IMG/VR virus record: IMGVR_UViG_3300037258_000287
Location: 1 to 56,027 of that record
Source of the DNA: a virus
Direction: 5' to 3' (one strand)
DNA length: 56,027 nt
Below the pieces are notes generated by a model. It did no database searches. It was not told the origin of the DNA and was given only the letters and a program-made list of their open reading frames with translations. Each line of letters opens with the position of its first letter. Positions within the stretch are counted from its first letter, which is position 1. The position numbers and the translations under genes were made by a program. Shown in pieces: positions 1 through 56,027 of this stretch.

Positions 1-127
1 CGCCTCCTGCTTCCGGCGTCTTTGTCGCTGACCTCGGGGTAACGTACGCGGGCCTCGGAGACCTCGAAAAGGTGAATAGCGTGACGGCCGCCGGGCAGTA
101 TAGCGTCAACGCCTCAACCGGCGTCTA
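1..127. repeat. Terminal redundancy, left copy (assembly overlap)
   Basis: These 127 bases are identical to positions 55901-56027. The major tail protein frame that leaves the right end continues correctly here, so the sequence is a closed circle cut inside that gene. A 127-bp overlap looks like an assembler k-mer rather than a biological terminal repeat; that is inference. Confidence 0.95.
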
Positions 128-24767: not shown

Positions 24768-24796
24768 TTGACAATAATCCAGCAAACCGCTATGAT
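24768..24796 (+). promoter_or_regulatory. Near-consensus sigma-70 promoter
   Basis: TTGACA (24768-24773), exactly 17 bases, TATGAT (24791-24796). It is the best promoter in the window and drives the gene at 24851 and the ribozyme-containing leader behind it. Confidence 0.85.
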
Positions 24797-24850
24797 GGTT
24801 ATGTAAGAAAGAACTGACGCCGGCAGTAACCGGCAGAAAAGAGCAAAGCA

Positions 24851-25177
24851 ATGACAACGATCACAGGTAACACCTTCCCGGTCAAAGATCAACTCAAGGC
24901 CCTCGGTGCGCGCTGGAACCCCGACGCGAAAGGCTGGATGGTCTCTGACGACAAGGCCGATGTGGCCCGCAAACTCGTCGCGGGCGCTTCTACCGCCCCC
25001 AGGCAGGCGACCGGCAAGCCCCACTTTCACAAATGCCACGAATGCGGCGCGCCCAGCCGCGGATACTATCGCTGCTATGAATGCTCACTTGAGTATCGCG
25101 ATGGCGGCTCACGCGCGAACGGTGGCATGTCGTACTACGACAAAAACGGCCGTTTTGTGCTCGGCGATGACGACTAG
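24851..25177 (+). CDS. DUF5710-like protein with zinc ribbon
   Basis: 108 residues. The first 45 (TGNTFPVKDQLKALGARWNP, KGWMV) match the small DUF5710-like domain, in which a peptide 'converts' residues before a Trp; it is common in phage and toprim-linked proteins. A CHEC...CYEC zinc ribbon follows (about 62-81). It lies directly under the 24768 promoter and its stop is 5 bases before the hammerhead ribozyme. Probably nucleic-acid binding. Confidence 0.75.
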   Translation: MTTITGNTFPVKDQLKALGARWNPDAKGWMVSDDKADVARKLVAGASTAPRQATGKPHFHKCHECGAPSRGYYRCYECSLEYRDGGSRANGGMSYYDKNGRFVLGDDD

Positions 25178-25182
25178 CCTAG

Positions 25183-25232
25183 CCTCCCTGATGAGCCGTG
25201 CGACGGCGAAACCCGCTCATGCGGGTCGGAGG
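25183..25232 (+). ncRNA. Hammerhead ribozyme (type I topology)
   Basis: All conserved parts are present in order. Stem I 5' strand CCTCC (25183-25187), core CTGATGA (25188-25194), stem II GCCG/CGGC with a 5-base loop (25195-25207), core GAAA (25208-25211), stem III CCCGC/GCGGG with a TCAT loop (25212-25225), UC of the GUC cleavage triplet (25226-25227), and stem I 3' strand GGAGG (25228-25232). Stem I is the open end, so this is type I. Cleavage is expected after C25227. It lies between two genes, so it would cut the transcript from the 24768 promoter and leave a 5'-hydroxyl leader on the downstream gene. Confidence 0.9.
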
Positions 25233-25250
25233 ATTCCAATCTACCCCGGC

Positions 25251-25268
25251 GCGCTCCGGTAAGAGCGC
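25251..25268 (+). other. Leader hairpin downstream of the ribozyme
   Basis: GCGCTC-CGGTAA-GAGCGC is a perfect 6-bp stem, 15 bases before the start codon at 25284. After ribozyme cleavage it would lie near the new 5' end and may protect the message or modulate initiation. Confidence 0.6.
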
Positions 25269-25283
25269 GGAAAGAGAACCAAA

Positions 25284-25727
25284 ATGGCAAACGACAATCC
25301 AAAGCTCACGATTACCCTGACCGGAAAACCTCCGGTCAAAATCACCAAAGACGAATGGCCTATAGTAGCGTCGGCCGAAGACAAACATTACGACAATCAG
25401 CACGAATTCCAGGCCAATCGCACGGCCACATGGAAGCTGATCGTCCGGCAACACAAGGACGGCCGCACGATCGTATATGGCATCTACAGCTATAGCAGTC
25501 AGTACCAGGGGGAAAGCGGCTCCGACATCAGAGGCGGTGAGCTTATCGCCGTCGAAGGATCCTCGGAGGAGGAGATCGGCGAGACCGACGGAATCATCGC
25601 CGCAATCCAGCGGGTAGGCGAAGACATGGAACAGCGCGTCCCGGATAACGGCGTGTGGGGAAAGGGCTATTTCCCCCGGCTGGTCCATGAGTGCATAGCG
25701 GACCTCCCCGCCGTGGAGCTGACATAG
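25284..25727 (+). CDS. Conserved phage hypothetical protein, 147 residues
   Basis: LTITLTGKPPVKITKDEWPI, then ANRTATWKLIVRQHKDGRTIVYGIY: a compact alpha/beta protein of a sort I associate with accessory regions of temperate phages. Its leader contains the hammerhead ribozyme, so its expression probably depends on the processed message. Ribosome site GGAAAGAG precedes ATG 25284. Function unknown. Confidence 0.7.
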   Translation: MANDNPKLTITLTGKPPVKITKDEWPIVASAEDKHYDNQHEFQANRTATWKLIVRQHKDGRTIVYGIYSYSSQYQGESGSDIRGGELIAVEGSSEEEIGETDGIIAAIQRVGEDMEQRVPDNGVWGKGYFPRLVHECIADLPAVELT

Positions 25728-25728
25728 G

Positions 25729-26217
25729 GTGATCGACCTTACAGATAAACGCTTCATTCGGCTACAGGTGATCGAGATAGCGCCAGAAAGGAGTTCATCT
25801 GGCGCTATCCGTTGGGTCTGCCAATGTGACTGCGGAAACCGGGTCACGGTTGATACCACCGACCTTCGGAGAGCTAAGACCATGAGCTGCGGATGTGCAA
25901 GACGAAACCCATTGACAACGCGTGAACAGATATTACTCAAGACACTAATGCGCGAGCCTGTAGGTCGTCCCGTGGTGAGGCGAGCCAAGTCCAAGATTGA
26001 TCGGCGGTCGATTGTGAGGCGTGATTTGTCCGGTAAAACATTCGGAAGGCTGTCGGTGAAGAGGCTTGACCATCGAGACCAATACCGGAAAGACTTTTGG
26101 TATTGCGTGTGCCTGTGCAAGAGGTCCCGTATCGTAAGGGGGGGCGCACTCTTATCAGGGCGCGCCGTATCGTGTGGGTGTAGGGGATGTAAGTCCGACG
26201 CGGGGAAAAACAAATGA
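25729..26217 (+). CDS. Duplicated zinc-binding domain protein (HNH-associated type)
   Basis: 162 residues from GTG 25729 with two copies of one domain. The first (about 2-57) reads DLTDKRFIRLQVIE...CQCDCGN...MSCGC. The second (about 97-152) reads DLSGKTFGRLSVKRL...CVCLC...VSCGC. This domain occurs in phage HNH/AP2-type homing proteins, but no HNH motif is present here. It may be a DNA-binding remnant or stand-alone binder. The second copy has CLCKR where the first has CDCGN, so one zinc ligand pattern is altered. Confidence 0.7.
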   Translation: MIDLTDKRFIRLQVIEIAPERSSSGAIRWVCQCDCGNRVTVDTTDLRRAKTMSCGCARRNPLTTREQILLKTLMREPVGRPVVRRAKSKIDRRSIVRRDLSGKTFGRLSVKRLDHRDQYRKDFWYCVCLCKRSRIVRGGALLSGRAVSCGCRGCKSDAGKNK

Positions 26218-26297
26218 GTTAGCCGACTGTGGAGTGACGCTGAGCCAGGATCATATCTCTTGGCCAATGCGCCCGCACAGCCGGGTACGATATCCAA

Positions 26298-26456
26298 ATG
26301 CAGACTGATAATATTACCCGCATCCGCCGCGCTGCCAGCCTCGCCCGCAAGACCAAATCCGGGGGCCGTAACGGAGGCCGTCCTATCAATCCCGATCGCT
26401 GCCACTGCGGGAAGATGACGCGGCTTCGTGCCGAGCAACGCGGGCATCGCTGCTGA
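26298..26456 (+). CDS. Small basic protein, 52 residues
   Basis: MQTDNITRIRRAASLARKTK... then CHCGKMT and a final Cys: Arg/Lys-rich with a small Cys/His cluster. It fits the gap before the recombinase. Modest support: composition and position only. Confidence 0.45.
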   Translation: MQTDNITRIRRAASLARKTKSGGRNGGRPINPDRCHCGKMTRLRAEQRGHRC

Positions 26457-26499
26457 CCGCCGGCCGTAAATGAAACGCTCATCCCGACTAAGGGAGCAG

Positions 26500-27150
26500 A
26501 TGGACAAGCAGCTCACCGCCGCAATCTACGCCCGCGTCTCGACCAAAGACAAAGGGCAGGACACCGAGAACCAACTCTCGCAGCTCCGGAAGTATGCCGC
26601 GAAACAGGAATGGGAGACCGTCGAGTTTATCGACCATGCCAGCGGAAAGCATGCGGACCGCGACGGCCTCACCAAACTCTTCGAAGCAGCGAGCCGGCGG
26701 GAGATCGATGTGGTGTTGGTTTGGGCTCTTGACCGTTTCACCCGGCAGGGCATCTTTGAGACGTTCGAACACATCGCCAAGCTCTCAAAGTATGGCGTGA
26801 GCTTCGAGAGTTTGACTGAGCCTCAGTTCCGGACCACCGGCGCCACTGGGGAGCTGATGCTGGCGATTGCAGCCTGGATCGCGAAGCAGGAACGCATCCG
26901 GATCAGCGAGCGCACCAAGGCCGGCCTGGCTACCGCACGGGCTAAGGGAAAGATTCTCGGCCGTCCGCGGATAGTGTTCCGCATCGACCTCGCCGAACAG
27001 ATGCGCGCCGCGGGCAAGAGTTGGCGGGCTATCTCTCGAGAACTCGGCATCCCCCACGCGACTATCCGGAAAGCACTTTCGGAGCGGAAAGCATCCCTAA
27101 AACCCGCGAAAAGGGGTGTGCAGAAAACCCCATCGAAACCCCGCCGCTAA
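26500..27150 (+). CDS. Serine recombinase (resolvase/invertase family)
   Basis: 216 residues. The catalytic domain begins at once: YARVSTKDKGQDTENQ with the active Ser, then VLVWALDRFTRQG with the conserved arginines, and a long E helix (LAIAAWIAKQERIRISERTK). A C-terminal HTH follows (KSWRAISRELGIPHATIRKA). Length and layout are those of small resolvases and invertases, not large integrases. AGGGAG is 5 bases before ATG 26500, which decides the start over 26470. It may resolve multimers, invert a segment, or be a moron; the tyrosine integrase nearby is the likely prophage integrase. Confidence 0.9.
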   Translation: MDKQLTAAIYARVSTKDKGQDTENQLSQLRKYAAKQEWETVEFIDHASGKHADRDGLTKLFEAASRREIDVVLVWALDRFTRQGIFETFEHIAKLSKYGVSFESLTEPQFRTTGATGELMLAIAAWIAKQERIRISERTKAGLATARAKGKILGRPRIVFRIDLAEQMRAAGKSWRAISRELGIPHATIRKALSERKASLKPAKRGVQKTPSKPRR

Positions 27151-28287: not shown

Positions 28288-29259
28288 ATGCAATTCGAGC
28301 AACTGCTGAGCGATTTTCAAGAGGCCTACATGCCGCGCCTGGCCGCGCCGACCCGAGCGAAGTACACCTCACTCATCCGGCAACACATCAGGCCCAAGTT
28401 CGCGGATATGGAAGTCGATGCCATCACCACCAAAGTGCTCGACATCTGGCTGAACAGTAAGAACGATCGGCTATCGTGGGCAGCCCGCGCCGACTTGCGC
28501 AACCTCATGTCGTCGATCTTCACCCGGGCGGAAAAGTACGGGACATGGGAAGGCAAGAATCCGGCGCGATATGCCAACCCCGGCCGGCGGGCGCCGAAAT
28601 ATGAGCACTGCAAGCTGACGGTAGAGCAGACGAAGACGCTACTCGCTCACCTGCCCGACGATGTCCGGCTCATCTGTATGGTGGCGCTGTTCTCCGGGCT
28701 GCGAATGAGTGAAGTGATGGGCTTGTGCTGGAAGCATGTGGACTTCTCGCGTGGCCTCTTTCTCATCCGGCAGCGCTACTGGCGCGGAGACATCGGACCC
28801 ACCAAGTCCGAGACATCGGCGCGCGATATTCCATTCGGCGACTTGCGGGAACTGCTGCTGGCGTTGAAACCCGAGGGCAACGTAGACGAGCGCTTCTGTT
28901 TCTCGGTCGAGACGCACGGTTTCGGAGCCGGCCGCGGCGGAGCTTACCGCGAGACCGGACAGACGCGCGATGATCGCTCAATTCACCAGCACTTCCTGCG
29001 TCCCGCGGCGGAAAAGCTGAACATTTATCGCAAAGGCTTTGGCTTTCATGCGTTCAGACGTGAAGCAATCACGGCCGTAGACGAAATATTGGGCTCAATT
29101 CAGGCAATGAAGTTCGCAGGGCACAGTAGTTTAAACGTCACCAGCCGCTACGGGCTCAAAGATCATGCCAAACAGGATCAGGCAGTTAGAAAACTCCAGA
29201 AACCGTATTCGTCTTTGCTTCGCCCTCGAACGAAAAATGTTACTACCAAGCCGAAGTGA
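28288..29259 (+). CDS. int: Tyrosine recombinase integrase
   Basis: 323 residues. A SAM-like core-binding domain (about 1-90) is followed by the catalytic domain with all expected residues: Arg139 (SGLRMSE), Lys173 (PTKSE), His254-x-x-Arg257 (HAFRRE), His279 (AGHSS) and nucleophile Tyr288 (TSRYG). It would integrate the phage circle at the host tRNA-Val 3' end represented by the attP-like sequence about 120 bp downstream. The dyad array at 28095-28159 lies upstream and probably controls it. Confidence 0.95.
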   Translation: MQFEQLLSDFQEAYMPRLAAPTRAKYTSLIRQHIRPKFADMEVDAITTKVLDIWLNSKNDRLSWAARADLRNLMSSIFTRAEKYGTWEGKNPARYANPGRRAPKYEHCKLTVEQTKTLLAHLPDDVRLICMVALFSGLRMSEVMGLCWKHVDFSRGLFLIRQRYWRGDIGPTKSETSARDIPFGDLRELLLALKPEGNVDERFCFSVETHGFGAGRGGAYRETGQTRDDRSIHQHFLRPAAEKLNIYRKGFGFHAFRREAITAVDEILGSIQAMKFAGHSSLNVTSRYGLKDHAKQDQAVRKLQKPYSSLLRPRTKNVTTKPK

Positions 29260-29380: not shown

Positions 29381-29434
29381 GATGATACCTTCACACGGAA
29401 GAGGTCCGGGGTTCGAGTCCCTGCGCGCCCACCA
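29381..29434 (+). other. attP candidate: 3' half of a tRNA-Val gene
   Basis: The sequence reads as the anticodon arm, variable region, T arm and acceptor 3' strand of a tRNA. There is ATACC-TTCACAC with anticodon CAC, T arm CGGGG-TTCGAGT-CCCTG (29408-29424), then CGCGCCC-A-CCA. No 5' half exists, so it is not a functional gene. Integrases often use tRNA 3' ends, and the recombination would rebuild the host gene. The identity is inferred from the anticodon position and the acceptor strand. Confidence 0.8.
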
Positions 29435-55542: not shown

Positions 55543-56027
55543 ATGGCCGCACCCACCACCGGCGGAACGCCCTATATTCAATTCGGCAGCGCGCTGCTGT
55601 ACCTCAATCCGAACGGGGGAAACCTCGCGACGAACCCGACCCCGACCAAACCCTACACGATCCAGAATTTCGAGGTCGACCAGTCGGGAGACCTGAAGGA
55701 CCTGCGCGGGCAGAGCCAGTATCCCGACGACACGGCCCGCTCCGACATCAAGTCCAGCTTCAAATTCTCTATCGGACGCACGGATTACTTCCTCCTGAAC
55801 CAGAACGTGTGGGCGGACACCACTGTGTCAGGGGGCACCTCAATTTCTCCCAACGAGGCGCACACTGTGCCTGCGTCTTCGGTCTATACCGTCACGATCA
55901 CGCCTCCTGCTTCCGGCGTCTTTGTCGCTGACCTCGGGGTAACGTACGCGGGCCTCGGAGACCTCGAAAAGGTGAATAGCGTGACGGCCGCCGGGCAGTA
56001 TAGCGTCAACGCCTCAACCGGCGTCTA
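55543..56027 (+). CDS. Major tail protein, N-terminal part
   Basis: Begins MAAPTTGGTPYIQFGSALLY after AAAGGAG. It runs off the end of the window and continues at position 1, giving 265 residues in total. IQNFEVDQSGDLKDLRGQSQ and KSSFKFSIGRTDYFL are typical of tail tube subunits. See the entry for 1-440. Confidence 0.85.
   Translation, partial: MAAPTTGGTPYIQFGSALLYLNPNGGNLATNPTPTKPYTIQNFEVDQSGDLKDLRGQSQYPDDTARSDIKSSFKFSIGRTDYFLLNQNVWADTTVSGGTSISPNEAHTVPASSVYTVTITPPASGVFVADLGVTYAGLGDLEKVNSVTAAGQYSVNASTGV
55901..56027. repeat. Terminal redundancy, right copy
   Basis: Identical to positions 1-127; marks the circle join. Confidence 0.95.

What the first reader, a model, noticed from the sequence alone, without database searches (positions are those of the whole stretch)
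25183..25232. Canonical hammerhead ribozyme in a phage operon leader
Every conserved element of a hammerhead is seen in order with perfectly paired stems: CTGATGA, GAAA, GUC cleavage triplet, 5-bp stem I, 4-bp stem II, 5-bp stem III. It is type I (open at stem I), sits 5 bases after one stop codon and 51 bases before the next start, under the best promoter of the genome. Cleavage after C25227 would split the transcript of 24851-25177 from that of 25284-25727 and leave a short leader with a hairpin. This suggests ribozyme-based control or decoupling of two early genes.
Basis: partly seen in the sequence, partly recalled or inferred. Interest (0 to 1): 0.92.

Follow-up and report, generated by a model that had tools for sequence, protein, structure and literature searches.

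The report
Hammerhead ribozyme between two phage genes
A complete temperate-phage genome carries, between two neighbouring genes, a textbook self-cutting RNA (a hammerhead ribozyme) that would split their shared message in two; such ribozymes are already known from many phages, so this is a convincing new example rather than a new kind of thing.

Summary
Bases 25183-25232 (+) read CCUCC-CUGAUGA-GCCGU(GCG)ACGGC-GAAA-CCCGC(UCAU)GCGGG-UC-GGAGG: a complete type I hammerhead with cleavage expected after C25227. No Rfam family reaches threshold, but Rfam also misses 10 other phage loci carrying such ribozymes. A covariance model built from 62 other IMG/VR hammerheads, without this one, finds it over its whole length (51.9 bits, E=1.3e-12); the next match has E=0.35. 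Zero such structures occurred in 24.6 Mb of simulated sequence. It is the only one in a 56-kb genome with 127-bp end repeats (probably complete).

It lies 5 nt after one stop codon and 51 nt before the next start, downstream of the genome's best sigma-70-like promoter. It is therefore an intergenic element inside an operon, not the operon's leader. This position is the rule: 73% and 74% of phage hammerheads in two samples sit at an upstream stop codon, against about 10% for random sites. Most likely it constitutively cuts the two-gene transcript, leaving a protected 3' end upstream and a 5'-OH mRNA downstream. Cleavage itself, regulation and "early" expression are not shown. Relatives of the upstream gene lack it, so it is sporadic. 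A new member of a known kind.

The parts
24768..24796 (+). sigma-70-like promoter TTGACA-17-TATGAT, the best in the window; start of transcription expected near 24803
   Evidence: 11 of 12 consensus matches; consensus match only
24851..25177 (+). upstream gene, 108 aa: DUF5710-like N-terminus and a CxxC...CxxC zinc-ribbon-like C-terminus; stop TAG at 25175-25177
   Evidence: weak Pfam DUF5710 match, below cut-off; 21 phage relatives
25183..25232 (+). type I hammerhead ribozyme
   Evidence: sequence and fold; R1 model 51.9 bits, E=1.3e-12
25188..25194 (+). core CUGAUGA (C3-A9)
   Evidence: direct reading
25195..25207 (+). stem II GCCGU/ACGGC with GCG triloop
25208..25211 (+). core GAAA (G12-A15.1)
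25212..25225 (+). stem III CCCGC/GCGGG with UCAU loop, closed on the core by A25211-U25226
25226..25227 (+). U16.1-C17; predicted cleavage between C25227 and G25228
   Evidence: by homology to hammerheads; not tested
25228..25283 (+). predicted 56-nt 5'-OH leader of the downstream mRNA, with hairpin 25250-25256/25263-25269
   Evidence: fold; inferred
25284..25727 (+). downstream gene, 147 aa, no relative found in any searched collection

Best explanation
It is a type I hammerhead ribozyme used as an intergenic RNA-processing site. Transcription from 24768-24796 runs through the 108-aa gene. Once bases up to about 25232 are made, the RNA folds and cuts itself after C25227. The upstream mRNA keeps its whole reading frame and stop codon and ends in the compact stem II/III structure with a 2',3'-cyclic phosphate. 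The downstream mRNA (147-aa gene and what follows) starts with a 5'-OH and a short hairpin leader, an end that the 5'-monophosphate-sensing route of RNase E does not use well. The cut thus turns one long phage transcript into separate mRNAs with protected ends and independent decay, constitutively rather than by sensing a signal. Shown here: the sequence, the structure, kinship with phage hammerheads, and the typical position. Inferred: cleavage in the cell, the fate of the products, and the benefit to the phage.
For: Complete core and three perfect stems. Independent covariance model: 51.9 bits, E=1.3e-12, all pairs standard, rank 29 of 127 model hits although not used to build the model. In that phage set the stems covary: 95.8% of cells paired against 63% in shuffles and 27-39% when slid; 419 double changes against 119 in shuffles. 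Phage hammerheads lie on the sense strand just behind a stop codon: 61/84 and 43/58 in two separately drawn samples, against 9-10% of random sites and 14-15% of non-hammerhead CTGANGA sites; the window fits, with its core 10 nt after the stop. Related arrays self-cleave in vitro and, from A. tumefaciens, in E. coli (PMC3088659). PMC4191395 reports low RNase E cleavage of 5'-OH substrates and, as unpublished data, no efficient phosphorylation of hammerhead-made 5' ends in E. coli.
Against: No cleavage data. Rfam finds nothing at threshold, though the same holds for 10 other phage loci with hammerheads. In longer transcripts the predicted probability of stem I falls to 0.1-0.2, but a similar drop is seen in 140 other phage hammerheads (median 0.03), so this says little. 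The 3' flank AUU lacks the AA common in the phage set. No homologous locus keeps the ribozyme: 20 records with relatives of the upstream gene and 3 with relatives of a structural gene have none, so selection on this copy is not shown.
Confidence: 0.7

Rival explanations
1. The ribozyme is active but has no selected role. Hammerheads arise or move easily and are tolerated in the small gaps behind stop codons of compact phage genomes.
For: Absent from phages carrying relatives of the upstream gene; only one copy in this genome; the gap just behind a stop codon is the only non-coding room in compact genomes (my inference).
Against: Stems covary over many phage hammerheads, so intact structure is kept as a class. 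Strong sense-strand bias at stop codons: 73-74% against 10-11% on the antisense strand.
Confidence: 0.2
2. A regulated ribozyme: cleavage is switched by translation of the upstream gene (a ribosome on the stop codon covers stem I) or by a ligand or protein, setting the ratio of the two gene products.
For: The stop codon is 5 nt before stem I, so a terminating ribosome would cover stem I and part of the core (inference from ribosome footprint). In many phage hammerheads the stop abuts stem I or is the UGA of the core itself. Alternative folds of stem I exist in longer RNA.
Against: No aptamer domain or conserved extra element. Alternative folds are equally common in other phage hammerheads and are probably an energy-model effect. 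No experiment.
Confidence: 0.08
3. A structural look-alike without catalytic activity, or a chance match.
For: No activity data; no Rfam call.
Against: Every core position and core-closing pair is canonical; E=1.3e-12 with an independent model; none in 24.6 Mb of simulated DNA.
Confidence: 0.02

Closest known systems
Type I hammerhead ribozymes of bacteria, prophages and phages (Perreault et al. 2011, PMC3088659)
   Same: Core, three stems, open stem I, sense-strand intergenic site in a phage, tyrosine integrase and resolvase genes within 1.2-3.1 kb downstream, predicted separation of neighbouring mRNAs
   Different: Single copy instead of the frequent clusters; flanking genes differ (DUF5710-like and an orphan gene); minimal stem II with triloop
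Rfam hammerhead families RF00008 and RF00163
   Same: Same core and topology class as type I
   Different: Below Rfam thresholds: best is a partial RF00008 match at 13.3 bits against a cut-off of 48.5
HDV-like theta ribozymes of gut phages (PMC10879173)
   Same: Self-cleaving ribozyme placed in phage transcripts
   Different: Different fold, and linked to suppressor tRNAs; no tRNA gene here

Membership tests
hammerhead ribozyme, type I | Core nucleotides C3 U4 G5 A6 N7 G8 A9, G12 A13 A14 A15.1, U16.1 H17 | tested here: met
   CUGAUGA 25188-25194, GAAA 25208-25211, UC 25226-25227
hammerhead ribozyme, type I | Core-closing pairs 10.1-11.1, 1.1-2.1 and 15.1-16.1 intact | tested here: met
   G25195-C25207, G25228-C25187, A25211-U25226; criteria as in PMC3088659
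hammerhead ribozyme, type I | Stems II and III closed by loops, stem I open-ended | tested here: met
   Order of segments on the strand; fold
hammerhead ribozyme, type I | Scores as a member with a model built from other members | tested here: met
   R1 built without it: 51.9 bits, E=1.3e-12
Rfam hammerhead families (RF00008, RF00163) | Reaches the Rfam gathering score | tested here: not met
   No Rfam match, 13.3 bits to RF00008. The same models also miss 10 other phage loci with hammerheads, so this test lacks sensitivity for the phage form; it is a database threshold, not a defining feature of the ribozyme
hammerhead ribozyme, type I | Loop II - stem I tertiary contact | tested here: inconclusive
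   5' flank UAG fits the phage model consensus uAg, but the 3' flank AUU lacks the common AA; no pseudoknot identified
hammerhead ribozyme, type I | Self-cleavage after H17 leaving 2',3'-cyclic phosphate and 5'-OH | not testable with these tools
   Needs in vitro transcription and end mapping

The most novel reading that the evidence does not exclude
Phage type I hammerheads, this one included, are systematically built onto the stop codon of the upstream gene (UAA/UAG abutting stem I, or the UGA of the core itself as the stop). Translation termination and RNA cleavage would then be mechanically coupled: ribosomes on the upstream gene hold the ribozyme open, and cleavage follows when they leave.
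Probability: 0.15. Interest if true: 0.65.

Novelty: new member of a known kind. Interest (0 to 1): 0.33.

Why it matters
What the many hammerheads in phage genomes are for is an open question (PMC10085705 says the reason for their gene associations is still unknown). This copy is simple: one ribozyme, one predicted promoter, one gene on each side, in a probably complete genome, so the processing model could be tested with one point mutation. The wider pattern at stop codons, seen in two samples, gives that question a specific prediction. Rfam's current models miss this phage form, so its abundance in annotated phage genomes is probably understated.

Tried and rejected
Chance: rejected. A second hammerhead, or types II and III, in the window: none convincing. 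Conservation of the locus: the orphan 147-aa gene has no relative in viral contigs, phages, plasmids or the five related records, and the upstream gene's relatives carry no hammerhead in their whole records, with a positive control that rang 8 times. A structural-protein query found three related phages without a hammerhead, two of them short contigs of 24.7 and 27.4 kb, and no bacterial genome. A near copy of this exact ribozyme was not found: genome and viral scans for a GCCG-CGGC stem II gave seven contigs with no sign of kinship to this phage. The context fold (stem I disfavoured in longer RNA) was considered as a switch and set aside, because other phage hammerheads behave alike. The 445-aa antisense frame over the site (25179-26516, -) was judged spurious, because the sense frame 25729-26217 has an HNH-related PHROG match.

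Full report
What is there. The + strand at 25183-25232 reads CCTCC CTGATGA GCCGT GCG ACGGC GAAA CCCGC TCAT GCGGG TC GGAGG. This is a type I hammerhead: stem I open, stems II and III looped. The minimum-energy fold of the 50 bases is that structure, with pair probabilities of 0.8-1.0. It is the only one in the window on either strand under relaxed rules, and 24.6 Mb of simulated DNA of the same dinucleotide make-up gave none. A search for permuted forms found only this one with an adequate structure.

Membership. Rfam at gathering thresholds is silent; with relaxed limits only a partial type III match of 13.3 bits appears. I therefore built a covariance model from 62 of them, without the window. 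It finds the window copy at 51.9 bits, E=1.3e-12, full length, all pairs standard; the next window match is E=0.35. Among 127 hits in 100 sources the window copy ranks 29th. On the alignment of those hits the stems covary strongly, with the caution that this alignment was fitted to the model and that the search pattern fixed some positions.

Setting. The window is a virus record with exact 127-bp end repeats, so probably a complete genome. It has a tyrosine integrase (28288-29259) and a resolvase-family recombinase (26470-27150) downstream of the site. The best sigma-70-like promoter of the window (TTGACA-17-TATGAT, 24768-24796) lies before the 108-aa gene. The ribozyme follows that gene's stop by 5 nt and precedes the 147-aa orphan gene by 51 nt. 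It is thus inside the operon, between genes, and not in its leader. A stable hairpin (25250-25269) would head the downstream mRNA.

Is the position typical? For 84 distinct hammerheads of the first sample, 61 (73%) have an ORF of at least 60 aa ending within -12 to +25 nt of stem I on the same strand. Random places give 9%, the antisense strand 11%, and CTGANGA sites without the structure 14%. A second sample, drawn with a different core (CTGACGAG), repeats this: 43 of 58 (74%), against 10%, 10% and 15%. Stops either lie just before stem I or are the UGA of the core. Sequences within a contig are not independent, but 40 of 54 and 33 of 42 contigs show it. ORFs were taken mechanically, so exact figures are rough. 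The 2011 paper that described many phage and prophage hammerheads (PMC3088659) does not use the term 'stop codon'; whether others have reported this is not known to me.

Conservation. Relatives of the upstream gene exist in 21 loci. None of 20 such records searched whole has a hammerhead at E<=0.1, while the control record gave eight. Three phages with a related structural protein also lack one, though two of these contigs are short. So the ribozyme comes and goes; selection on this single copy cannot be shown here.

Mechanism. The simplest account is constitutive processing of a two-gene transcript into mRNAs with protected ends. Self-cleavage of related clustered hammerheads in vitro, and in E. 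coli for the A. tumefaciens set, is reported in PMC3088659, which also proposed processing of long phage transcripts. That RNase E cuts a 5'-OH substrate poorly, and that a hammerhead-made 5'-OH end is not efficiently rephosphorylated in E. coli, comes from PMC4191395 (the latter cited there as unpublished). Applying this to the unknown host is inference. Regulation by ligand or by translation remains open; predicted refolding of stem I in longer RNA is common to other phage hammerheads and is no evidence for a switch.

Verdict. Observation confirmed; interpretation partly supported; a new, clean member of a known kind. The more interesting element is the general link of phage hammerheads to stop codons, which deserves its own test.

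Noticed in passing
IMG/VR loci L005-L124 and L139-L255, e.g. L041, L106, L101: Phage type I hammerheads lie on the sense strand directly at the upstream gene's stop codon in 73-74% of cases; in many the UGA of the conserved CUGA core is itself the stop.
   Followed up: partly
L006, L008, L009, L019, L021, L025, L031, L035, L040, L041: Rfam release 15 at gathering thresholds calls none of the hammerheads in these phage loci, although they have full cores and paired stems.
   Followed up: partly
L041:1333-6899, L089, L106, L026: Arrays of five to eight or more hammerheads on one strand within a few kb of phage DNA, apparently between small genes.
   Followed up: no
window 1-127 and 55901-56027: Exact 127-bp direct repeat at the two ends of the window: the record is probably a complete phage genome.
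   Followed up: no
window 29398-29434: Sequence like the 3' part of a tRNA (GGTTCGAGTCC...CACCA) about 140 bp after the integrase gene, with no whole tRNA found: a likely attachment-site core.
   Followed up: no
window 25284-25727: 147-aa gene directly after the ribozyme with no relative in viral contigs, phages, plasmids, Pfam or PHROGs.
   Followed up: partly
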